From a virus, in the IMG/VR virus record IMGVR_UViG_3300031787_000171, positions 1 through 52,569 of that record: a stretch of 52,569 nucleotides of DNA; one strand, given 5' to 3'. How positions within the stretch are numbered: position 1 is the first letter of the stretch; each line of letters starts with the position of its first letter. Below the pieces are notes generated by a model. The model was not told the DNA's origin and searched no databases. It saw nothing but the letters and a program-made list of their open reading frames with translations. Of this stretch, positions 584 through 38,769 are shown one piece after another. Made by a program: the position numbers and the translations under genes.

Positions 584-646
584 CGTGGACAGTTTTATCA
601 GGTACACATTCAGGGGTCAACAGGTTTTTTCGGGGTAGGCCAAATC

Positions 647-676
647 GACAAGAAAATAAGATTCATACTTTCTTGT
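647..676. repeat. 30-bp hairpin repeat, copy 1
   Basis: This 30-bp segment is identical to 2031-2060. Its ends, ACAAGAAA and TTTCTTGT, form an 8-bp inverted repeat around a 13-base loop. A related partial element (AACAAGAAAATAAGTTTCAC) lies nearby at 725-744. All copies are in non-coding DNA of the left 2.3 kb. Confidence 0.85.
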
Positions 677-2703: not shown

Positions 2704-2745
2704 GTTTTGAAGGTATATAATGCAGCAATGCTACACCATGTTGTG

Positions 2746-2760
2746 TTTTTACACCATGTT
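2746..2760. repeat. AACATGGTGTAAAA motif, second 3'-end copy
   Basis: The same 15-mer as at 1307-1321, here 13 bases after the stop of the 212-aa gene, with a further AACATGGTGT at 2733-2742. Together they form a direct repeat separated by AAAAACAC. Confidence 0.6.
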
Positions 2761-2773
2761 CTATTAAAACAAG

Positions 2774-3412
2774 TTAGGCTATTTCTTCTGGATTGATAAA
2801 GAAATTCTTTTGGAATTCTTCAAAGAATGTTGTTCCATCTATCTTATTTGTTGTAAAATATTCTTCTATATAGGTAGCGGTTTCAGATATGAGTCTGTCT
2901 CTGGTATATTCGCTTTTGAATTCTGTTTTTTGTATTGTATCGACTAATTTGGAAGCAAGTATGGATTGGTCTTTTTCTGATTGGATTTCTTTTTCGATGA
3001 GTTGAAAGGCTTCATTGAACTTTTGTTCTTCTTCTACTTGGAGGGTTTCGTCTTCAAAGAGAGTTTCTGCTGATAGGTGGAGCATAACATATTCTACGGC
3101 CATTGCTGCCAGATCTTCGTTTTCTGGTGTTCCTTTGAATCCATAGATTTTTTTATGGGCTTCTGCATACAGAGACGTAATCATGTCTCGGAGGTTATAG
3201 GGGGTTTCTTCTTTCTTGTTGAGTTCGATGAGTTCTGCTGCAAGGGTTTCAAAGAGGTTCTTGAAGCTATCCAAGGTCAGAAAGCTTTGGAACTTGAGAT
3301 CCTTTTCAAATGCATCAGGAAAGTCTTGTTTGATTCGATTGGCCACAGAATCGATAATCTGTTGTACTTGTTCGTCGGGTGGAACTTCGATAAGATTGGT
3401 TTGGTTGTCCAT
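2774..3412 (-). CDS. Hypothetical 212-aa acidic helical protein
   Basis: Not recognised. The product is strongly acidic and predicted to be almost all helix, with no Cys, no membrane segment and no obvious catalytic motif. Its segments LAAMAVEYVMLHLSAETLF and TATYIEEYFTTNKI look like packed amphipathic helices. The start at 3412 is fixed by a sigma70-type promoter whose -10 lies 13 bases upstream. It stands alone, between the AT-rich repeat region and a curved-DNA segment. This position and its sigma70 promoter suggest early rather than late expression. Structural, DNA-mimic or regulatory roles are all possible and none is supported directly. Confidence 0.75.
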   Translation of the reverse strand: MDNQTNLIEVPPDEQVQQIIDSVANRIKQDFPDAFEKDLKFQSFLTLDSFKNLFETLAAELIELNKKEETPYNLRDMITSLYAEAHKKIYGFKGTPENEDLAAMAVEYVMLHLSAETLFEDETLQVEEEQKFNEAFQLIEKEIQSEKDQSILASKLVDTIQKTEFKSEYTRDRLISETATYIEEYFTTNKIDGTTFFEEFQKNFFINPEEIA

Positions 3413-3425
3413 AGTATTTTTTCAT

Positions 3426-3453
3426 ACTATATCATTTTTTTATTAAAAGTCAA
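3426..3453 (-). promoter_or_regulatory. Sigma70-type promoter for the 212-aa gene
   Basis: Minus-strand TTGACT (3453-3448), a 16-base A/T-only-rich spacer and TATAGT (3431-3426). The expected start is about 7 bases before the ATG at 3412. Confidence 0.7.
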
Positions 3454-3515
3454 ACGTATTGGGTTATTTTGACTTTTTTTTCTATTCTACAGAGTAAACC
3501 TTAAAAAAATAGATA

Positions 3516-3584
3516 TTTTTTATGGTTTTTTGACCCATTTTTCCCCACTTTTACCCACTTTTCTGGTATTTTTGGGTACTTTTT
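3516..3584. other. Seven helically phased T-tracts: predicted curved DNA
   Basis: Runs of 4-6 T are centred at about 3518.5, 3528.5, 3540, 3550.5, 3560.5, 3571 and 3582, separated by C/G-containing steps. The mean spacing is 10.6 bp, matching the helical repeat, so the individual tract bends should add up. It lies 3' of the Thr/Ser-rich gene pair and upstream of the 212-aa gene's promoter, where it could affect either transcription or replication. No gene is visible in 3413-3617. Confidence 0.75.
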
Positions 3585-3591
3585 CGGGTAT

Positions 3592-3616
3592 AAATAGCCT
3601 TGAAAGAGGGCTATTT
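3592..3616 (-). terminator. Stem-loop after the first Thr/Ser-rich gene
   Basis: AAATAGCC (3592-3599) pairs perfectly with GGCTATTT (3609-3616) around a 9-base loop, directly after the minus-strand stop codon at 3618. The minus-strand sequence beyond it (TATACCCGAAAAAG) is not T-rich, so termination is plausible but not typical. The plus strand here also reads TATAAATA (3589-3596). Confidence 0.45.
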
Positions 3617-3617
3617 C

Positions 3618-4031
3618 TTAGGATATTCTCCAGACCCAACTTACGCTCACGCCTCGTCTGACAGGCACCAGACGCCAACGAGGAGTTACGGGACGGCTGG
3701 TTGTGCTTGTGACTGTTGTACTGGTTGTTGTGGTAACGCGAGGAACAGGAGGTTGGGAAAATGCACCCTGCAATTGGTAGAGATTTGTCGGCGCACCGGG
3801 CGCCACTGGTGCTGCATTGTTTACAAGTGGGGGAGCCTGAACCACAGTCGATGTGGTCGTGGAAACACTGACTGCACTGTAACCAAAACGCGCACGAAGA
3901 GTTGTTGTGATCGTGTTGGTATTTCTTGTTACAGTCGTGACACCACTGGTATAAGCATTGCCACTAGTTGTAACAGAACGACTAATGCTGTTTGTTGTTG
4001 TGATAAGAGGTCTTCTGGCGAACATCCACAT
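3618..4031 (-). CDS. Thr/Ser/Val-rich basic protein, paralogue A
   Basis: Not a recognised family. The 137-residue protein consists of Thr/Ser/Val runs (TTTTSTTVTSTTS, VSVSTTTSTVV) framed by basic ends. It shares with the next gene upstream a common layout: RRPL/GRTF start, TTT tract, TLRxRxGYxxVSxS, QAPPxVNNxAP, and a C-terminal PRWRLxPVxxGxxxxWVWR. The two are tandem duplicates that have diverged. The composition suggests a beta-rich or fibrous surface protein. A late promoter octamer ends 7 bases before the ATG. An overlapping plus-strand Cys-rich frame (3600-4163) is judged a shadow because the paralogy holds only on the minus strand. Confidence 0.7.
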   Translation of the reverse strand: MWMFARRPLITTTNSISRSVTTSGNAYTSGVTTVTRNTNTITTTLRARFGYSAVSVSTTTSTVVQAPPLVNNAAPVAPGAPTNLYQLQGAFSQPPVPRVTTTTSTTVTSTTSRPVTPRWRLVPVRRGVSVSWVWRIS

Positions 4032-4046: not shown

Positions 4047-4484
4047 TTAAAATCTCCTCCAAACCCATCTACCCCAACCAACAGGGATCAAACGCCAGCG
4101 AGGGCGAATTGGACGAACAACTGTTGTAGTCACGCTGCTGGTGACTGTTGTGCTCGTACCTGATGCAGGAACTGCGGGTTGTACATAAGCCATTGCTGAA
4201 TTTGATGTTCTTTGACGAAGACTTTGTTGTACAGCAGGTGTTTGTGATGGAGCAGGATTGTTGACTGTTGGTGGTGCTTGCCATACTGTTCCTCTGGATA
4301 CTGATGTAGAAAAGCTGGCAGACGTAGAAACGGAAACATATCCATATCTGCGACGAAGAGTGGTTACAAAGCTGTTCGTTCTTACTGTTGAAATTACACC
4401 ATTGCTGGTGGTTGTTGATACCCTCGTTGATGTCGTGGTTGTTGTTGCAACCGGACGGCCAAAGGTTCTTCCAAAGAAAATCAT
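4047..4484 (-). CDS. Thr/Ser/Val-rich basic protein, paralogue B
   Basis: This 145-residue protein is the tandem paralogue of the gene at 3618. Visible in order: a basic aromatic start (MIFFGRTFGRP); a Thr tract (ATTTTTSTRVSTTTSN); the shared TLRRRYGYVSVSTS block at about residues 43-56; QAPPTVNNPAPS at about 70-81; a Gln/Ala-rich segment; a second Thr/Val tract; and RPRWRLIPVGWGRWVWRR at the C-terminus. Trp and Arg are concentrated in the last 20 residues. There is no signal peptide. Late timing of both genes fits a virion or lysis role. Function is unknown. Confidence 0.7.
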   Translation of the reverse strand: MIFFGRTFGRPVATTTTTSTRVSTTTSNGVISTVRTNSFVTTLRRRYGYVSVSTSASFSTSVSRGTVWQAPPTVNNPAPSQTPAVQQSLRQRTSNSAMAYVQPAVPASGTSTTVTSSVTTTVVRPIRPRWRLIPVGWGRWVWRRF

Positions 4485-4854: not shown

Positions 4855-6099
4855 TTAGGTAGTCGGAGGAAATATTTTTTCTCTTTCATCTTTCGGGAAA
4901 TTCAATAAAACCTTATCTTTATTTTTACTTGCCATCACTGCCTTGATCATTTTTTCTGGTGGGTATTTTTCGGTTCTTCTACCTGTATCAGCATCATCCC
5001 AAGTCCATTCTCTGAAATATACTTCTAATCTTTTTGCCATTAGATCTGGTCTTTCATCCGTTAGTTTGACAAGGTTTTCATAGGAAAAATCTTCAATATC
5101 AAAGTTTTTTTCTGGAAGATAACCACCTCCTTCAATGTCTTTAATTAGATACTTGCCATTTTCTTTGTGAGTCAAAAGACTCAGAATATAAGGGTGGTAT
5201 TTTTCTTGTGGTTTTTGGTTTCCTCTACCTTTCATTTCTCCTAAAAATTCTCCTGACTTTAAAATAAAAGTCAAATTAGGTTTGGCCAAAAGAATTCCAT
5301 CTTTTTGTTTTTTCATTTCTCGTAATGACAAAACAGTATCGGTGTGTGCAAATGCTCCTTTGTTACCACAGTGACCCATTGCTTTTCCTTCTTGTTCACA
5401 ATAGGGACGCATTAAAGTAAACCAACCCATGTTTCCAAAATTTATAAACTCTTTGATGTTTCCTTTCTTCATATCATCGGTGACATCAATCCATTGACCT
5501 GCACTTTGTTTCCATTCGTTTTCCATTTCATCCACAGTTCGAGCCACCACATACCATTGTTCATTGGGACTGACATTTTTTAAATAAGTTTGCAGTTTTG
5601 GTATGGGTAAAGAAAGCCAGTGTTGTATGGACGTTGAAATTGAACGAGGAATTCTTTTTAAATAGTCTTCATACTCTTCTTTGGAACTTGTCATTTCTTG
5701 TCCATCTTCATCCAATTGTCTATCAAAAACCACCCCATATCTTTCCATGTCTTTCCACATTGTTTCCATATCTAAAACCACTTTTTTCAAAATTATCATG
5801 ACCAAGTTTTCTTTTTTTGCCAAAACAGAAACATTTTTTATTAACTGTTGAAAATCAAAAGTTAGTTCTTCAATGTTGTATTCTTTAATTTCTTTCTTGT
5901 ATTCTTCTTCGGTTTTATCTTTTGCACCAAATTCAGATTTTATCGAGGACTCTTGGTATTGAAGAGGAAACCCTTCAGGAAGATCGGCAAACTTTTGAAT
6001 AATTTTGTTGAACATGGGAAGAAATCTTTCTTTTCTTTTTTCATTCAAAATTTCTCTTGTATAAATTTCTTCCAAAATGATTTGATCTTTTGATCGCAT
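4855..6099 (-). CDS. PcfJ-like domain protein with putative head-targeting leader
   Basis: The 414-residue protein has two visible parts. The N-terminus MRSKDQIILEEIY matches a leader shared by several neighbours, with Glu at position 10 in an I-L-E site. At about residues 236-310 it carries AMGHCGNKGAF, then LSLRE, then PNLTFILKSGEFLGEMKGR and NQKPQEKYHPYI. This order (MGHC, SLR, a beta pair, KGxGNxKP, KYxPY) is the pattern of PcfJ-like proteins found in conjugative plasmids and phages, whose biochemical role is unknown. Between the two lies an acidic helical region. Inference: a virion-internal protein, perhaps injected. It diverges from the 132-aa gene over a 14-bp palindrome that supplies both late promoters. 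Confidence 0.65.
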   Translation of the reverse strand: MRSKDQIILEEIYTREILNEKRKERFLPMFNKIIQKFADLPEGFPLQYQESSIKSEFGAKDKTEEEYKKEIKEYNIEELTFDFQQLIKNVSVLAKKENLVMIILKKVVLDMETMWKDMERYGVVFDRQLDEDGQEMTSSKEEYEDYLKRIPRSISTSIQHWLSLPIPKLQTYLKNVSPNEQWYVVARTVDEMENEWKQSAGQWIDVTDDMKKGNIKEFINFGNMGWFTLMRPYCEQEGKAMGHCGNKGAFAHTDTVLSLREMKKQKDGILLAKPNLTFILKSGEFLGEMKGRGNQKPQEKYHPYILSLLTHKENGKYLIKDIEGGGYLPEKNFDIEDFSYENLVKLTDERPDLMAKRLEVYFREWTWDDADTGRRTEKYPPEKMIKAVMASKNKDKVLLNFPKDEREKIFPPTT

Positions 6100-15096: not shown

Positions 15097-15663
15097 CTAT
15101 TTTTGTGAATTAACGTAAGCTTTATAACTTGACCAATTTGGAAACTTGGTACTTTTACCAACGACCATTGTCTTAAACTGTTGACGAACTGGTCTTTGTG
15201 TTCGCGGATCTGTTTCTGTTAAAACAAAATCTTTCTTTTTTTGAGGACCGCTTTCGTTACGTAGAATAATTTCATCTTTTTCTATTCGCCAATCAGGGTT
15301 ATTTTCTGTTTTAACAAATGAATATGGTGATGTTTTGCGGTCAGGCTTCATCAATGTAACTTGGAATTGTCCTTCTAAAAATTCTACATTTTCTTTTTTA
15401 TATGGAGCAGTAGCAACTTTTGTATCAATATGTGCGGTAACTTCTGGGTTTTGTTGATAAATGGCAATGTCACCAGGTTTTGGTTGATTGTTTACACCAT
15501 ATGATTGACCTTCTTTTTTTCCTTTTTCTGTTTGATAGTTTTTAATAGTTTGTCCCAAGAATGATGGATCTTCAGCGGCTTTTAAAAACGAACCAGCAGC
15601 AGATGCCGTTCCTTTTACTAAACTACCCAAAAATTCATTAATAACAGTATCAAATTTGTGCAT
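15097..15663 (-). CDS. Hypothetical 188-aa basic protein with leader
   Basis: Not recognised. The N-terminus MHKFDTVINEFLGSLV has Asp5 and Glu10 in an I-N-E site, matching the leader pattern. It continues with a small-residue helix (KGTASAAGSFLKAAED). The rest is Lys-rich and beta-like (FQVTLMKPDRKTSPYSFVKT, DEIILRNESG). A basic, possibly processed internal head protein is the best guess. Its late promoter octamer contains the stop codon of the upstream gene. Confidence 0.65.
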   Translation of the reverse strand: MHKFDTVINEFLGSLVKGTASAAGSFLKAAEDPSFLGQTIKNYQTEKGKKEGQSYGVNNQPKPGDIAIYQQNPEVTAHIDTKVATAPYKKENVEFLEGQFQVTLMKPDRKTSPYSFVKTENNPDWRIEKDEIILRNESGPQKKKDFVLTETDPRTQRPVRQQFKTMVVGKSTKFPNWSSYKAYVNSQK

Positions 15664-17632: not shown

Positions 17633-17941
17633 ATGAATATAGCACTAGCACAAGCAATACAAGAATTGGTTCCAAACGCAATTGTCAATGTTATTAATGA
17701 TAAAATCGAATGGATTGAACCAACGGTTGCCCCAGTAACAAAAGAACAATTAGAATTAAAAGCAAAAGAAATACAAGAAAGAAACATGTATAAATTTCGT
17801 CGTATGAAAGATTATCCAGCTATATCTGATCAATTAGATATGATTTGGCATACGATTAATTCAGGAGGAACTTTGGATCAAAACTCTGATTTTTATAAAT
17901 CTATAAAACAAGTCAAAGATAATAATCCAAAGACAACATAA
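17633..17941 (+). CDS. Tail-fibre chaperone-like protein, 102 aa
   Basis: The C-terminal half carries MKDYPAISDQLDMIWHTINSG, then YKSIKQVKDNNPK. The YPxxxDQLDxxWH and IKxVKxxxPK signature is frequent in small proteins encoded next to phage tail fibres, often annotated as fibre assembly chaperones. The N-terminal half (ALAQAIQELVPNAIVNVIND) is an alpha/beta start. It follows the fibre-like gene by 3 bases and should be cotranslated with it, which supports a role in folding or attaching that fibre. Confidence 0.65.
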   Translation: MNIALAQAIQELVPNAIVNVINDKIEWIEPTVAPVTKEQLELKAKEIQERNMYKFRRMKDYPAISDQLDMIWHTINSGGTLDQNSDFYKSIKQVKDNNPKTT

Positions 17942-32423: not shown

Positions 32424-35400
32424 TTAGTTAATTGTACATCTTCTAGGATGACGAATATTATTGGTATCAGCGAAGTTGAGAGCACACATGCGCGTATTAT
32501 TCCAACCACAACTAAAAAGGTCTCCTTTTTGTGTAGCAGCTAATAACACATTACCACCAGCCCAACCGTAAGGACAAAAATCTATGATTTTATCTTGTTT
32601 TGGAAAAAGCATTGGTCTAAAGAATCTATTATGTTCAATGGGTGATGTGCTGTCGGATGGATAGGGTCCTCTTCCGCACTGTCCCGCTCCATTATATCCA
32701 GTTGCATACAATATACCATTTTCTGATAATGCATAAACTGATGCATAATCATAAGTTGAAGTTGTGCCACTACCCCAAGCTTGACCTGCGACGATAACTT
32801 TTTTAAAATTGATGTTCTCTAAACCGTCTGGAATCGTAGGTACGTGTGAGTTTGTTGTACCGTTTCTTCCCAAATAACCTAAACTGTTATACCCCCAAGT
32901 AACCAATTTGCCGTCAGTTCTAATTGCAGCCACGATTCCATTGTGATATCCACTGGCAGAAAAGCTTTTAATAGTTCCTAAACCAGAAACTTCTAATAAG
33001 TTATTTCTGGCTGTTGTTGCTGTTGAAACTCCTAATTGGCCATATTGGTTGGAACCGCAAGCAAAAAGTCTATCTCCATTTTGTATAAAAGTTGCTCCAG
33101 AATTATTCCAATGATGGGCAATTACGGCATCTGCTTTTATATTCGGTATTTGTGTAAAAACAGTTTTTGCAGCACCATCAATACCAAGCATAGGACCATA
33201 TGAACCTCTAACATAAATATTTCTTTCATTATCGATAGCGAAAGCAATATGACCATTTGATGTGAATTGATCTGATTGGGTCCAAACTTTTTGGATATTT
33301 TTACCAACAATATTACCTGTTGTAATTAAAGTTGGTACTCTGACATCTGCTGCCAATCCAGTTCCACCACTCCATCCCCAACCATATAATCTTCCATCGG
33401 ATGTTACAGCAAAAGCCCAAGGGTACATGCCAAAATACGGCGATGCATTATAACTATGCCACCAACCATGACTCATATTGTTATTACAGCTAAAATGAAC
33501 AACATTTGGTAATGCTATTTTTTTCCAATAAGTAAGAACTGTTGATACTGCATCATTAGTTCCTAACTGTCCATATTGATTAACACCAATAGACCAAAGG
33601 TTGCCTAAATTTGTTAAAATATATTTATTAGTGTGGTTTGTATATATTTTTTCTATAACTTCATTAGGCTCAAAATCTGGAATTTCCACAGAGAAAAATC
33701 CTTCTCTAGTTTGAGTAATATCTGTACCAAAACCAATTTGAGGACTTCCATAATCATCCGCACCAGCAGAATAAAGTCTTCTATCAGCAGATATAAATAC
33801 CGACATTCTTGCCGTATTTCCCAAATTTTCAACATCTTGAAAAGAATACCATTTTTTAGATAAGTCTAAATTTGTAATTCCCGTACCATCACCGAAAATT
33901 GTTCCTGTTGCACTGATGTTTCCAACAACCGTTAAACTTTGATTTGCATTTGGAGTATTGATACCTACATTTCCAGCGGGTGTGATTCTTATACCTCTGT
34001 TTTGAGTTGACCATTGGGCCAACGTCAACCCTCCAGTATTAACGCCGCCATTACCATGATATATTATAGCTACGTCATTAACTTGTGTTAATGGACTATA
34101 ATTTCCAATTTGTGTATTATCCAAGAACATTAAAGTTCCACCATTTGTAGATGACATTCTTATATCTGGTGATGCACTAGGAACAGTTTGTTTTCCAACA
34201 ATATCTAAACGAATTCCTTGATCAACAACTGCTCTTCCCATCGAAACGCTTCCATCGTTGTCTATAGCAAGACTTGGAGACGGGTCGGCTGCTTGATCTT
34301 CAACAACTAAAGCATAGCCACTTCCTTGTTGGCTTACAAAAAGAGCGGTTCCAGAGCCTTGATTTACGATAACTGCGGCAGATCCGTTTGGAGAAAGATT
34401 ATTAACTAAAAATGCATCGCCAGTATTTGCCGTGTCATTTGTAACGGTAAGAGCGTAATGATTTGTTGAATTTTGGTAAATTGATAATTTTGCATTTGAT
34501 GGATTTCCATTGTTGATACCAACATTTCCAGTAGATCCTTGTATAGTAAGTTTTGTTGTGCCATTCCAAACTCTTAAATCTGGTGTACTTGTGTTATTAT
34601 AAGCATCAATTAACCAACCTAAACTATTATCAGAAGATCGATTTAATACAAGTTGTCCACCCTCGTTAGCTGAATCTTCTCTTGAAAGAACTAAATTTCT
34701 AATTGTTGCATTTGATCCTACATTTAATGTTGGAACTGTTAAGTTTCCTGACATGGTTCCACCTGAAAGAGGAACAACGTTTGGAATAAATGTTGGAACT
34801 GCTCCGAAGATTACATATTCCAAAACATAATTTGGTGCTTTAGTTGGTTCTGTGAGAACAATTCTGTTTAGATTTGCCTGATCATCATAGTCATAGTTAA
34901 GAACTAATTTGACACCGTTTAAGAAAATATCCAAACCATCGGGATTGTGTGCAGGAATTCCGTCAACAATTGTTGTTCCTGCATCAGTAATAGTAATAAT
35001 ACCACGAATGGCTTGGTAGTTTGCACTATTTGCTTGGAATGTTGAAAATACAGAATTCCATTGTGTAGAATTTCCTCTGCCGTCATAAACAATTGCATTG
35101 GAACTTATATTTCCAACAACTGTTAATTTTTGGTTTGGTGTGGTTGAACCTATTCCAATATCACCAGAAGTATTTAATGTTATTCTAGCAGAAATTGTTG
35201 CTGCTGTATTATTGCCTGTTGTATTGTTAGGAGCATACCAAAGGGTTAAATTATCAGATGTTTGTCCGAATGCATATCCATGACCATTATCTAAATATTC
35301 CCATCTTGCTTGATTTGGATCATAAAATAAGTTTATCCCAATCACTCCAAAATTAGGAGTTACCAAATGGTTTGTTGTGGTAACACCGCTAACATGCAAC

Positions 35401-38345
35401 TCACTAACCGGGCTTGCAGTATTAATTCCAAAAAACCCGTTTGTATGAATTCTTGCTCTTTCAGTTGTGCTTTGGCGGAATACTATTGGTGCCGATGTTG
35501 TTCCTGTAGAAATTCTTAATCCACCAGTAACACCAGAACCACTAGTCCAATCAACAATATCGCTGGTATCTTCTGTTAATGCAATTACAGTATTGGCATT
35601 TGCTGTTCCTGTAACGAGTTCAAATTGAGCCTTAGAGTTTGTTACAGTTGAATTGTTTGTAACACGCATCGAAGTTGTAGAACCGTGTCTTGCACTTGTT
35701 ACATTGAACAAAGTCGTTGTAGCCGTGAAAGCTCCAATTGAACCTGCAATTTGTAATCTTTGTTGTTGTGATGGTCCTTCAAAAACTCTGAGTTCTGGTG
35801 TAGTTGTTGAACCAAAAGTATCTATGTGCCAAGCTATAGCATTATCTGATGCTCTTCCAAATTGTATTTCCCCGCCTTCGTTGATTGAATCAGTTCTGCT
35901 GAATTTAACAGCACCTGCAATATCCATGATACCAGTAGTAGCAGGATCTGTTGTGTTAACACCTACTCTACCTGCACTGGTTATTCTCATTCTTTCCGAT
36001 CCATTAGAAATAAATCGGAAGCTATCGTCTGATGGTTCAATTAAAAGATAATCATTATTTCTATTTTCAAACCTTCCTATTTGTGAATAGACTATGTTTG
36101 ATGCACTTACGTTTCCAACAACTGTTAATCTTTCATTCGGAGTTGTTGTATTTAAACCAACAAATCCTCCAGATTTAACAACAACTGTATCTGCATTATT
36201 ATTTTTAAAGAAAAGATCTTTTCCAATATCAAATGTGTAATCTATGTTAGTTGATGTGCCGATTCTATTAGATGTCCCATATGCACCAACTCCCAATGCA
36301 TAGTTATTTGAAAGATTATTAATTCTTATTGGATAATCTGTAGTATTATTCGAGTTACTTAAAATTGTTAATTTGTTTGTAGGGGAAGATGCACCTATTC
36401 CAACATTACCATCTGTATCAATTACAAATGGAGTTGTATCAGAATTAACGTCTTCTACTAAAAGTGCATTTCCTGTTCCCGTTTGTGTGATTCGTAAACC
36501 AGCACCAGCACCAGCTTGAGTTATAAGAACAGCAGGATTCGAAGAATTATCGGTTACGTGTAAGATGCTAGTTGGTGTCAGTTGGTTAATACCAACATTT
36601 CCAGTATTCAAAACTGTAACTCTGGCAATGTTATTTGTTTCTAATGTTAGATTAGTTGAATTGTTTGTTCCAACTGTTACTGCACCAGTATTTCCACCAT
36701 TTAATACCCAATTAGCACTATTTGAATTTACTGTTGTTGCAACTTGGCTTAAATTGATACGATTTGTGTTGACGTAAGAATTTACATCATTAATTGTTGC
36801 GCTCGTATTATTGATGTATGATGTAGCCTGAGAAATATTAGAAGATAATGTGTTAAAGTGAACATAGTTACTTTCCCATCTTGCAGACAAAGCACAGACT
36901 CTGTTAAAGTTAGAAACCCAATTACGACTGTCACCACCTGCACCACCGGGCACTAAAAAGTATCCCGATAAAAACATATTTCTTCCAACAATTACATCTT
37001 GAGCTACTCCAAGATTAGTACCAAACGTTCCACTGGTTTCAACAATCAAATTTGAAGAAGTTACAGGAATAACTTGAGCATCAATAACTGTAAATCTTTG
37101 TGCTGTCAACGCTCCCAATACAACTAAATTTGCAAAAGGACCGAATGTTAAATTTCCTGAAAACCCAACGTTTCCAGTTACTAATCCACCAGAAAGTGGT
37201 AAAAATCCATTAGTGTATGCATATGTTGTGAATGAAGCACTGTTGGCATTATAATGGCTATAATTGCTTACAATGTTTCTATTATTTTGATTTATGAAAT
37301 TTCTAGCAGAAAGCTCAAATCCGCTTGTAGAATTCCATGTAGAATATACCGAATTCCAATTTGCAGATGTTCCATTTACAGTAGAAACTACTTGTGCTGT
37401 ATTTGCTGTTAATGGGTTCCAATAACTATAAACACTCTCCCATCTGGCGGATAAAGCGCATACGTTGTTAAAGTTGGAAACCCAGTTACGACTGTCACCA
37501 CCTGCACCACCAGGAATCGTCATTACCCCTGAAAGATGAAGATTTCCTGTTCCGATTATATTCCCTCTTGTAGAGAGGTTTCCCAAAAGAGACAGTTTTT
37601 CATTAGGTCGATTGACTCCAATACCCAAAGAATCTAAAAGGTGTATATTAGTTGCACTTAAAGTAGAATTTGAACTTAAATTTCCATTAATTGTTAAATC
37701 TATTAATGGGTTTGCTGTTTTAATACCAACATTACCAATATTATTGATGACAAATGGTGTTGTATCATTTATTTCATCGAATACTTCTACTGCATTACCT
37801 GTTCCGGTTTGAACAATATACAAACCATCTAAATTATTATTTGCAGAAATAGTTATTGAATCTGTAACAAATATCTGTTTAGCACTTAAAACATTTGAAG
37901 TTGAAAGTTGATTGATATATGTTATTGCATTTTGATCAATATAATAAGCAGTTAAAACACGCGAATGCGTAGACCCTGATGTATTTGAAGTAAAAACAAA
38001 ATTATTAGATGATTCGTCGTAATAAAAAGTAAAACCTGTTAAACTTGTTAATTCTGTTGTGTTGGTTAATGTGTCAATTTCACCAATAAAAAATTCAGGA
38101 TTTGATCCATCATTTGGTGTTCTGTTATATAATTTTATAAATCTTGAAGATAAATCTACGGTTAAAAGATTTGTTGATGCTTGGTTTACCCAAGTAGCAT
38201 AATCTTGTTTTTTGGTATAAAGAATGACATCTTTTGTTTGGACTTTTCGGGTAACACCCTGCTGCTGCATTGGTAAAATTTCTTCACCATCCAAAGGAAT
38301 TCCTATTGGTAATTCTGTGATTAACTTTGTTCTGATATCTGCCAT
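32424..38345 (-). CDS. Long tail fibre with VGI repeats and RCC1 propeller (1973 aa)
   Basis: The N-terminus has the baseplate-attachment layout seen in the 296-aa fibre. From about residue 200 to 1500 it has repeated fibre motifs such as GNVGIGASSPTNKLTIL, GFVGLNTTTPNERLTVVGN, GDIGIGSTTPNQKLTVVGN and GNVGINTPNANQSLTVVGN. These usually precede an S74 intramolecular chaperone in other phages. Here the last 410 residues instead form an RCC1/BLIP-II-type beta-propeller (YGQLGTNDAV, DGRLYGWGWSGGTG, NQYGQLGVS, DGKLVTWGYNSLGYLG, NGILYATGYNGAGQCG, KGDLFSCGWNN). A 75-bp segment is duplicated near 36873 and 37437. Probably the main receptor-binding fibre; the propeller would sit at its tip. Confidence 0.85.
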   Translation of the reverse strand: MADIRTKLITELPIGIPLDGEEILPMQQQGVTRKVQTKDVILYTKKQDYATWVNQASTNLLTVDLSSRFIKLYNRTPNDGSNPEFFIGEIDTLTNTTELTSLTGFTFYYDESSNNFVFTSNTSGSTHSRVLTAYYIDQNAITYINQLSTSNVLSAKQIFVTDSITISANNNLDGLYIVQTGTGNAVEVFDEINDTTPFVINNIGNVGIKTANPLIDLTINGNLSSNSTLSATNIHLLDSLGIGVNRPNEKLSLLGNLSTRGNIIGTGNLHLSGVMTIPGGAGGDSRNWVSNFNNVCALSARWESVYSYWNPLTANTAQVVSTVNGTSANWNSVYSTWNSTSGFELSARNFINQNNRNIVSNYSHYNANSASFTTYAYTNGFLPLSGGLVTGNVGFSGNLTFGPFANLVVLGALTAQRFTVIDAQVIPVTSSNLIVETSGTFGTNLGVAQDVIVGRNMFLSGYFLVPGGAGGDSRNWVSNFNRVCALSARWESNYVHFNTLSSNISQATSYINNTSATINDVNSYVNTNRINLSQVATTVNSNSANWVLNGGNTGAVTVGTNNSTNLTLETNNIARVTVLNTGNVGINQLTPTSILHVTDNSSNPAVLITQAGAGAGLRITQTGTGNALLVEDVNSDTTPFVIDTDGNVGIGASSPTNKLTILSNSNNTTDYPIRINNLSNNYALGVGAYGTSNRIGTSTNIDYTFDIGKDLFFKNNNADTVVVKSGGFVGLNTTTPNERLTVVGNVSASNIVYSQIGRFENRNNDYLLIEPSDDSFRFISNGSERMRITSAGRVGVNTTDPATTGIMDIAGAVKFSRTDSINEGGEIQFGRASDNAIAWHIDTFGSTTTPELRVFEGPSQQQRLQIAGSIGAFTATTTLFNVTSARHGSTTSMRVTNNSTVTNSKAQFELVTGTANANTVIALTEDTSDIVDWTSGSGVTGGLRISTGTTSAPIVFRQSTTERARIHTNGFFGINTASPVSELHVSGVTTTNHLVTPNFGVIGINLFYDPNQARWEYLDNGHGYAFGQTSDNLTLWYAPNNTTGNNTAATISARITLNTSGDIGIGSTTPNQKLTVVGNISSNAIVYDGRGNSTQWNSVFSTFQANSANYQAIRGIITITDAGTTIVDGIPAHNPDGLDIFLNGVKLVLNYDYDDQANLNRIVLTEPTKAPNYVLEYVIFGAVPTFIPNVVPLSGGTMSGNLTVPTLNVGSNATIRNLVLSREDSANEGGQLVLNRSSDNSLGWLIDAYNNTSTPDLRVWNGTTKLTIQGSTGNVGINNGNPSNAKLSIYQNSTNHYALTVTNDTANTGDAFLVNNLSPNGSAAVIVNQGSGTALFVSQQGSGYALVVEDQAADPSPSLAIDNDGSVSMGRAVVDQGIRLDIVGKQTVPSASPDIRMSSTNGGTLMFLDNTQIGNYSPLTQVNDVAIIYHGNGGVNTGGLTLAQWSTQNRGIRITPAGNVGINTPNANQSLTVVGNISATGTIFGDGTGITNLDLSKKWYSFQDVENLGNTARMSVFISADRRLYSAGADDYGSPQIGFGTDITQTREGFFSVEIPDFEPNEVIEKIYTNHTNKYILTNLGNLWSIGVNQYGQLGTNDAVSTVLTYWKKIALPNVVHFSCNNNMSHGWWHSYNASPYFGMYPWAFAVTSDGRLYGWGWSGGTGLAADVRVPTLITTGNIVGKNIQKVWTQSDQFTSNGHIAFAIDNERNIYVRGSYGPMLGIDGAAKTVFTQIPNIKADAVIAHHWNNSGATFIQNGDRLFACGSNQYGQLGVSTATTARNNLLEVSGLGTIKSFSASGYHNGIVAAIRTDGKLVTWGYNSLGYLGRNGTTNSHVPTIPDGLENINFKKVIVAGQAWGSGTTSTYDYASVYALSENGILYATGYNGAGQCGRGPYPSDSTSPIEHNRFFRPMLFPKQDKIIDFCPYGWAGGNVLLAATQKGDLFSCGWNNTRMCALNFADTNNIRHPRRCTIN
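36873..36947 (-). repeat. Internal duplication in the RCC1 fibre gene, copy B
   Basis: This segment encodes GGAGGDSRNWVSNFNR then VCALSARWES, and is duplicated at 37437-37511 with a few synonymous differences. The 3' third (TACGACTGTCACCACCTGCA on the plus strand) is identical in both copies. Confidence 0.75.
37437..37511 (-). repeat. Internal duplication in the RCC1 fibre gene, copy A
   Basis: It encodes GGAGGDSRNWVSNFNN then VCALSARWES. Partner of 36873-36947. The protein repeat probably marks two equivalent points in the fibre shaft. Confidence 0.75.
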
Positions 38346-38355
38346 GACTTATTAA

Positions 38356-38363
38356 TATTTAGG
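38356..38363 (-). promoter_or_regulatory. Late promoter octamer for the RCC1 fibre, embedding a stop codon
   Basis: CCTAAATA on the minus strand ends 11 bases before the ATG at 38345. Its TAA (38361-38359) is the stop of the 136-aa gene. Confidence 0.6.
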
Positions 38364-38769
38364 ATGTTTGTAAGATAAACCAACCAATCGTACTTCTATC
38401 ATTTGCGTGTGTAGATGATATTGTAAAGCTAACTGATGGGATTCTTGTTCTGATAAATGGTGTTCCAATATTTACAGATGAAGTTTGTGGGGTTAACAGA
38501 ACAATCGAACTGGCTTGAATTGCTGTTGTGGTTACCAAAGCTGAAGAACCTGCCACAAGAGTAGTAAATCCCACTGTTTTATAATCCCTTGAAATATTAA
38601 ACCCACTAACAGTTAAACCTCCACTTGAACTCAAATTACCATTAACACAGAAAATACCTTGAAATGGAGCATCTGGACTTGCTATTGGATCATGTCCTGC
38701 ATCTGGATTATAAGGATCTGTGTTTGTGTGATGATTTTTTCTATGAAATTTAGAATGAAACCTATTCAT
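38359..38769 (-). CDS. Small virion protein with fibre-tip-like beta domain, 136 aa
   Basis: The first 45 residues are extended and rich in His, Asn, Asp and Pro (SKFHRKNHHTNTDPYNPDAG, DPIASPDAPFQGIF), likely an anchoring strand. The remainder is a beta domain with TTAIQASSIVLLTPQT, IRTRIPSVSFTISSTHANDR and STIGWFIL. This matches a C-terminal module common in phage tail and fibre proteins (AITASSxIxLTPQ ... PGxSFTIxSTxAxDxSTVxW). It is a single-gene unit between the 2204-aa protein and the RCC1 fibre and may join or decorate one of them. Confidence 0.7.
   Translation of the reverse strand: MNRFHSKFHRKNHHTNTDPYNPDAGHDPIASPDAPFQGIFCVNGNLSSSGGLTVSGFNISRDYKTVGFTTLVAGSSALVTTTAIQASSIVLLTPQTSSVNIGTPFIRTRIPSVSFTISSTHANDRSTIGWFILQTS

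What the first reader, a model, noticed from the sequence alone, without database searches (positions are those of the whole stretch)
3516..3584. Seven T-tracts in exact helical phase
T-runs of 4-6 bases recur at spacings of 10, 11.5, 10.5, 10, 10.5 and 11 bp (mean 10.6), interrupted by C/G steps. This is the classical layout of a strongly curved fragment, and such regularity over seven tracts is unlikely by chance even in AT-rich DNA. It separates the sigma70-driven left end from the late region.
Basis: seen in the sequence. Interest (0 to 1): 0.65.

Follow-up and report, generated by a model that had tools for sequence, protein, structure and literature searches.

The report
Conserved curved-DNA array in T4-like phages
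A short stretch of regularly spaced T-runs in a large T4-like phage is predicted to bend the DNA more sharply than anywhere else in its genome, and the same single-copy bend sits at the same place in four related phage lineages although the neighbouring genes have changed, which points to a docking site for a protein (perhaps where DNA copying starts) rather than a simple gene switch.

Summary
In detail: seven T-tracts with centre spacings 10, 11.5, 10.5, 10, 10.5 and 11 bp. Nowhere else in the window or its 211,587-bp relative are more than three consecutive tracts phased; 300 shuffles gave at most five. By two models it is the strongest predicted bend of both. Followed into relatives, the array recurs once per record, at one syntenic place before rIIA/rIIB, in four lineages of this T4-like phage group, each time as the record's strongest bend. 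The unit is conserved: A-tract-TACC(C) units, then A-tract-TGGG units. All seven window/relative differences in and beside it spare the tracts. Flanking genes and one flanking promoter type differ between lineages, so it is not tied to one promoter. In the window it lies about 95-165 bp upstream of a sigma70-like promoter and abuts a T4-type late core pointing away. Best guess, inferred only: a protein-wrapped curved site, most likely origin-type like the T4 oriE repeats; transcription control is nearly as likely. No gel, binding or replication data exist here. New variant of a known kind. Side finding: no Shine-Dalgarno signal and late promoters about 6 nt from ATG, implying leaderless late mRNAs.

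The parts
3511..3591 (-). phased array read on the minus strand: TACCCG-A5-GTACCC-A5-TACCAG-A4-GTGGGT-A4-GTGGGG-A5-TGGGTC-A6-CCAT-A6; seven tracts, linkers change from C-rich to G-rich in the middle
   Evidence: strongest predicted bend of window and of relative G001
3516..3584 (+). the seven T-tracts of the finding (3516-3521, 3526-3531, 3538-3542, 3549-3552, 3559-3562, 3569-3573, 3580-3584)
   Evidence: run of 7 unique in window and G001
3466..3616 (.). 150-bp segment with the largest predicted net bend in the window
3426..3453 (-). sigma70-like promoter TTGACT-N16-TATAGT with TG before the -10, directed at ORF 2774-3412; the array lies about 95-165 bp upstream of its expected start
   Evidence: hexamers conserved in G001/G002
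3411..3430 (.). inverted repeat ATAGTAT-N6-ATACTAT overlapping the -10 and the start codon, operator-like
   Evidence: read from sequence; unchanged in G001/G002
3445..3477 (.). inverted repeat AAAAGTCAAA-N13-TTTGACTTTT overlapping the -35
   Evidence: read from sequence; arms conserved in G001/G002
3487..3494 (+). CTACAGAG (CTCTGTAG on the minus strand), an 8-mer found in either orientation, with one change in one lineage, beside the array in all four lineages
3589..3596 (+). TATAAATA, T4-type late promoter core abutting the array, pointing right (away from it)
   Evidence: ATAARTA is strongly enriched before start codons in this phage group
3592..3616 (.). hairpin AAATAGCC-TTGAAAGAG-GGCTATTT after the stop of ORF 3618-4031; overlaps TATAAATA; lacks a T-tail
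2774..3412 (-). 212-aa ORF downstream of the sigma70-like promoter; no Pfam or PHROG family; found only in this lineage
3618..4031 (-). 137-aa Thr/Val-rich ORF running toward the array; resembles ORF 4047-4484

Best explanation
SHOWN by sequence: a single-copy intergenic cis-element of about seven to ten helically phased A-tracts separated by conserved GC linkers (TACC(C) units, then GTGGG/ATGGG units), predicted to be the most curved DNA of each record and kept at one syntenic position in four lineages of a T4-like phage group while flanking genes and one flanking promoter type changed. INFERRED: it is a pre-bent scaffold on which a DNA-binding protein, probably phage-encoded, assembles, reading both the repeated linker sequence and the bend, and wraps about 70-150 bp. 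Its most likely job is origin-type: initiator loading at the array opens the adjacent AT-rich stretch, and a transcript from a neighbouring promoter may prime synthesis, by analogy with T4 oriE, where evenly spaced direct repeats lie at a syntenic place in related phages. The origin step is the weakest link.
For: Array and unit found at the same place (upstream of rIIA/rIIB) in lineage A (window, G001, G002), B (G016, 188,421), C (G017, 17,680-17,800) and D (G010, 50,798). It is the rank-1 bend in each record by two models and the repeat occurs once per record. Flanking genes differ: the 212-aa gene has no match in the other contigs searched, G010 among them, and the 54-aa divergent gene occurs only in C and D, so the site is kept independently of any one gene. 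All seven window-versus-G001 differences in and next to the array fall in linkers, none in tracts. A low-stability 100-bp stretch lies within 400 bp (97th-99.9th percentile in window, G016, G017, G010; 89th in G001). [quoted passage not shown]
Against: Strand-corrected GC skew changes sign near 60 kb in G001, not at the array at 37 kb. DNA polymerase and helicase genes lie about 95-117 kb away in G001. T4's own annotated origins are not notably bent (64-94 degrees within 500 bp versus 168 here). The repeat period is that of the helix, not 12 nt. No binding protein was identified. Contigs with 42% identical rIIA (L125/L126) show no such array in the flank held. In three of four lineages the array sits next to promoters, as a transcription-control site would.
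Confidence: 0.35

Rival explanations
1. Transcription control: the bend stimulates or regulates neighbouring promoters. In the window it would act as upstream curved DNA (about -95 to -165) on the sigma70-like promoter of ORF 2774-3412, or as the binding site of a regulator that controls two opposed promoters, as p4 does at the A-tract region of the phage phi29 early/late switch.
For: A near-consensus sigma70-like promoter lies downstream on the minus strand and a late core TATAAATA abuts the other side. In lineages C and D the array lies between two opposed late-type motifs. phi29 p4 reads A-tracts and a flanking G (PMC3100819).
Against: The promoter type on the gene side differs between lineages (sigma70-like in A, late-type in C and D, none seen close in B), and T4-type late promoters are not known to need upstream curvature (own knowledge). 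The array is rather far from the -35 for a direct effect. The element stays when the genes are replaced.
Confidence: 0.33
2. Packaging initiation (pac) site: a ring of small terminase wraps the bent array, as SPP1 G1P wraps pacL.
For: SPP1 pacL is intrinsically bent and small terminase is proposed to select bent DNA (PMC4737164, PMC4856287). One copy per record; kept independently of flanking genes.
Against: The large terminase gene is at 116.4-118.2 kb in G001, some 79 kb from the array; known pac/cos sites usually lie at the terminase genes (own knowledge).
Confidence: 0.12
3. Topological element: the bend pins a supercoil tip or separates opposed transcription units without a dedicated protein.
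For: Position between opposed promoter motifs in lineages A, C and D; the tracts are spared, linkers change, between window and G001.
Against: The linker sequence GTGGG/ATGGG is kept in all four lineages, which bending alone does not require.
Confidence: 0.1
4. No selected function: a tandem repeat that arose once and is inherited.
For: AT-rich phage; units could arise by slippage; the array DNA is no more conserved between window and G001 (92%) than the nearby noncoding stretch (96%).
Against: Kept through divergence in which matching DNA fell to about 65-70% identity between G001 and G010, with tract number and linkers drifting but the rank-1 bend kept in all four; differences avoid tracts.
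Confidence: 0.1

Closest known systems
T4 oriE iterons
   Same: Evenly spaced direct repeats, conserved at a syntenic place in related T4-like phages, with an early-type promoter (PMC3016281)
   Different: T4 repeats are 12 nt; the oriE area is not strongly bent (81 degrees at most within 500 bp); no repEA/repEB homologue was sought here; replication start not shown
phage phi29 p4 region (A2c-A2b-A3)
   Same: A-tracts with flanking G between opposed promoters
   Different: phi29 sites are inverted repeats CTTTTT-15 bp-AAAATG, and p4 relies on individual A-tracts rather than on global curvature; here a head-to-tail array of seven or more tracts; unrelated phage
phage SPP1 pacL
   Same: Intrinsically bent DNA of about 100 bp suited to wrapping
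   Different: No terminase gene nearby; the repeats here are regular and sequence-conserved
curved upstream DNA of sigma70 promoters
   Same: Phased A-tracts upstream of a near-consensus promoter in lineage A
   Different: Starts about 95 bp from the expected start site, and the promoter is not kept in other lineages

Membership tests
intrinsically curved, phased A-tract DNA | several A/T-tracts of 4-6 bp at helical spacing | tested here: met
   seven tracts, 10-11.5 bp; unique in window and G001
intrinsically curved, phased A-tract DNA | predicted bend far above genome background | tested here: met
   rank 1 in five records, z 5.3-7.6 over 69 bp and 6.2-7.9 over 120 bp
intrinsically curved, phased A-tract DNA | anomalous gel mobility at low temperature | not testable with these tools
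   needs a gel
T4 oriE-type iteron origin | evenly spaced direct repeats, conserved at a syntenic place | tested here: met
T4 oriE-type iteron origin | early promoter nearby | tested here: inconclusive
   sigma70-like promoter in lineage A; not evident in C and D
T4 oriE-type iteron origin | shift of strand composition at the site | tested here: not met
   sign change near 60 kb in G001, array at 37 kb; some T4 origins lack such a shift too
T4 oriE-type iteron origin | start of nascent DNA | not testable with these tools
   needs infected cells
SPP1-type pac site | bent DNA next to the terminase genes | tested here: not met
   large terminase is 79 kb away; the small terminase gene was not identified
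SPP1-type pac site | binding by small terminase and cleavage nearby | not testable with these tools
   needs protein or virion reads
phi29 p4-type regulatory site | inverted repeat CTTTTT-15 bp-AAAATG | tested here: not met
   all seven tracts have their T's on one strand
curved upstream element of a sigma70 promoter | adjacent sigma70 promoter conserved with the array | tested here: not met
   seen in lineage A only

The most novel reading that the evidence does not exclude
A shape-plus-sequence origin (or other genome-handling site) of a T4-like phage clade: a single strongly curved iteron array with opposed GC linkers, bound and wrapped by a still unknown phage protein, and kept while the neighbouring genes are exchanged.
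Probability: 0.3. Interest if true: 0.65.

Novelty: new variant of a known kind. Interest (0 to 1): 0.47.

Why it matters
The repeats at T4 oriE have no established role (PMC3016281). A single, precisely located, highly regular array kept at a fixed place while neighbouring genes change gives a clean cis-site to test: delete it, shift its phase by half a turn, or fish for the protein that binds it. It also gives a simple sequence signature for lining up circularly permuted genomes of this uncultured phage group.

Tried and rejected
Strand-corrected GC skew as a test of an origin at the array: sign change elsewhere. Rfam: only the tRNA-Leu. DNA similarity of the region in 50,697 phage records: only chance-level hits; protein 2774-3412 in phage records and bacterial genomes: none. 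The AAAANTGGG x3 pattern in GTDB genomes: 12 scattered hits in unrelated phyla, not examined further and taken as chance. Among viral contigs, L068/L071 and L069/L070 also match that pattern but in different surroundings; not counted as homologues. L084 is the same lineage as L079. G-quadruplex reading: four runs of GGG only in lineage C, so not conserved (from the sequences). Terminator reading: the T-tracts have no preceding hairpin on the plus strand, and hairpin 3592-3616 has no T-tail. T4's origins and gene 16 area as yardsticks: no comparable bend. Contigs L125/L126 with a distant rIIA: no array in the flank held. G008 and G013 have no such peak, but the G008 contig does not cover the syntenic region. 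Bait with protein 3618-4031: no relatives in viral contigs.

Full report
WHAT IS THERE. A count of consecutive tracts of four or more at 9.5-12 bp finds a run of seven here, a next best of three in the window, three in the 211-kb relative, and at most five (once) in 300 comparisons with dinucleotide-shuffled windows. A simple tract-phase score agrees (34.2 against at most 32.3). The numbers are predictions from linear sums and should be read as ranks, not as measured angles.

WHAT GENOME. The record is a virus contig of 52,569 bases. It is about 91-94% identical over most of its length to IMGVR_UViG_3300042289_000986 (G001, 211,587 bp), wrapping over that contig's ends, so the genome is circularly permuted and the site is not near a genome end. 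G001 carries T4-type portal, major head protein, tail sheath and tube, terminase, DNA polymerase, gp46-like nuclease, rIIA and rIIB; the window has a gp25-like baseplate protein.

ANATOMY. On the minus strand, from right to left: the end of ORF 3618-4031; a hairpin (3616-3592); the array, TACCCG-A5-GTACCC-A5-TACCAG-A4-GTGGGT-A4-GTGGGG-A5-TGGGTC-A6-CCAT-A6; an AT-rich stretch with the 8-mer CTCTGTAG; an inverted repeat over the -35 of a sigma70-like promoter (TTGACT-16-TATAGT, 3453-3426); a second inverted repeat over the -10 and the start codon; ORF 2774-3412. On the plus strand TATAAATA (3589-3596) touches the array and points right.

RELATIVES. The 212-aa ORF is known only from near-identical contigs, so the array was followed by scanning relatives for curvature and then by using the rIIB protein as a bait. 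The same array, with the same two kinds of unit in the same order, lies upstream of rIIA/rIIB in three further lineages: G016 (195 kb; rIIB 93% identical), G017 (69 kb; 63%) and G010 (122 kb; 61%). In all four lineages it is the strongest predicted bend of the record by the wedge model at 69 and 120 bp and by tract phase; the margin at 69 bp is small in G016 (131.5 against 127.3) and clear at 120 bp (192 against 161). The lineages are not equally independent: A and B are close, and C and D are about 80% identical in DNA around the site. Contigs with a 42% identical rIIA show none in the flank held. Between window and G001 the region is 92% identical, no more than other noncoding DNA nearby (96%), yet all seven differences in and beside the array lie in linkers.

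READING OF THE FLANKS. In this phage group ATAARTA is strongly enriched just before start codons (51 of 269 genes in G001 against 1.8 expected), so it is taken as the late promoter core of the T4 type. In lineages C and D late-type motifs lie on both sides of the array, before a 54-aa gene on one side and, on the other, a gene whose product in D bears a shared N-terminal tag. In lineage A the gene side has the sigma70-like promoter instead and the 54-aa gene is gone, though TATAAATA remains; in B neither was seen near. The array therefore outlives its neighbours. That is the main argument against a plain upstream promoter element and for a site with a function of its own.

MECHANISM. Phased tracts plus conserved linkers suit a protein that reads both shape and sequence and wraps the DNA (inference). 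Known precedents are T4 oriE repeats (role unproven, PMC3016281), SPP1 pacL (PMC4737164, PMC4856287) and phi29 p4 sites (PMC3100819). Origin-type function is put first because of repeats at a fixed syntenic site independent of neighbouring genes and a low-stability stretch close by. It is not proven: strand composition does not switch at the site, T4's own origins are not strongly bent, and nothing is known of a binding protein. Transcription control is almost as likely; packaging is less likely since terminase lies 79 kb away.

VERDICT. New variant of a known kind.

Noticed in passing
G001 genome-wide (L014-L024); also G016, G010, G008: T4-type late promoter motif ATAARTA ends a median 6-9 nt before ATG (27 nt in T4), and Shine-Dalgarno-like sequence is at background (5-8% of ORFs against 55% in T4). 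This implies leaderless or nearly leaderless late mRNAs in a T4-like phage group, and a host that does not rely on SD.
   Followed up: partly
window 4855-6099 (-); G001 31558, 34655, 79667, 81705, 101396; G010 50406: Otherwise unlike proteins share an N-terminal tag of the form MxxKDQxxLExxY; could be a capsid-targeting signal like that of T4 internal proteins.
   Followed up: partly
window 2733-2766 and 1294-1327; G016 188951-188986; G017 15260-15295: AACATGGTGTA-type repeats 18 bp apart in three lineages, in the window upstream of -10-like TATAAT/TATATA sequences on the minus strand: candidate activator boxes of middle promoters.
   Followed up: partly
window 646-676 and 2030-2060; G001 six copies at 38-68 kb: About 29-bp palindromes ACAAGAAAATAAGATTCATACTTTCTTGT in noncoding DNA, not found in G016, G017, G010 or G008.
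   Followed up: no
window 3618-4031 and 4047-4484 (-): Two similar Thr/Val-rich ORFs only 63% identical in DNA to G001, beside DNA that is 92-96% identical: fast-changing genes or exchange.
   Followed up: no
L075:5665-5766: Tandem AACCCTTTCGGAAAC repeats directly downstream of the array in lineage B.
   Followed up: no
window 32424-38345 (-) and 38359-38769 (-): A 1973-aa protein with RCC1 repeats beside a protein with a K1-lyase C-terminal domain: likely host-range structures.
   Followed up: no
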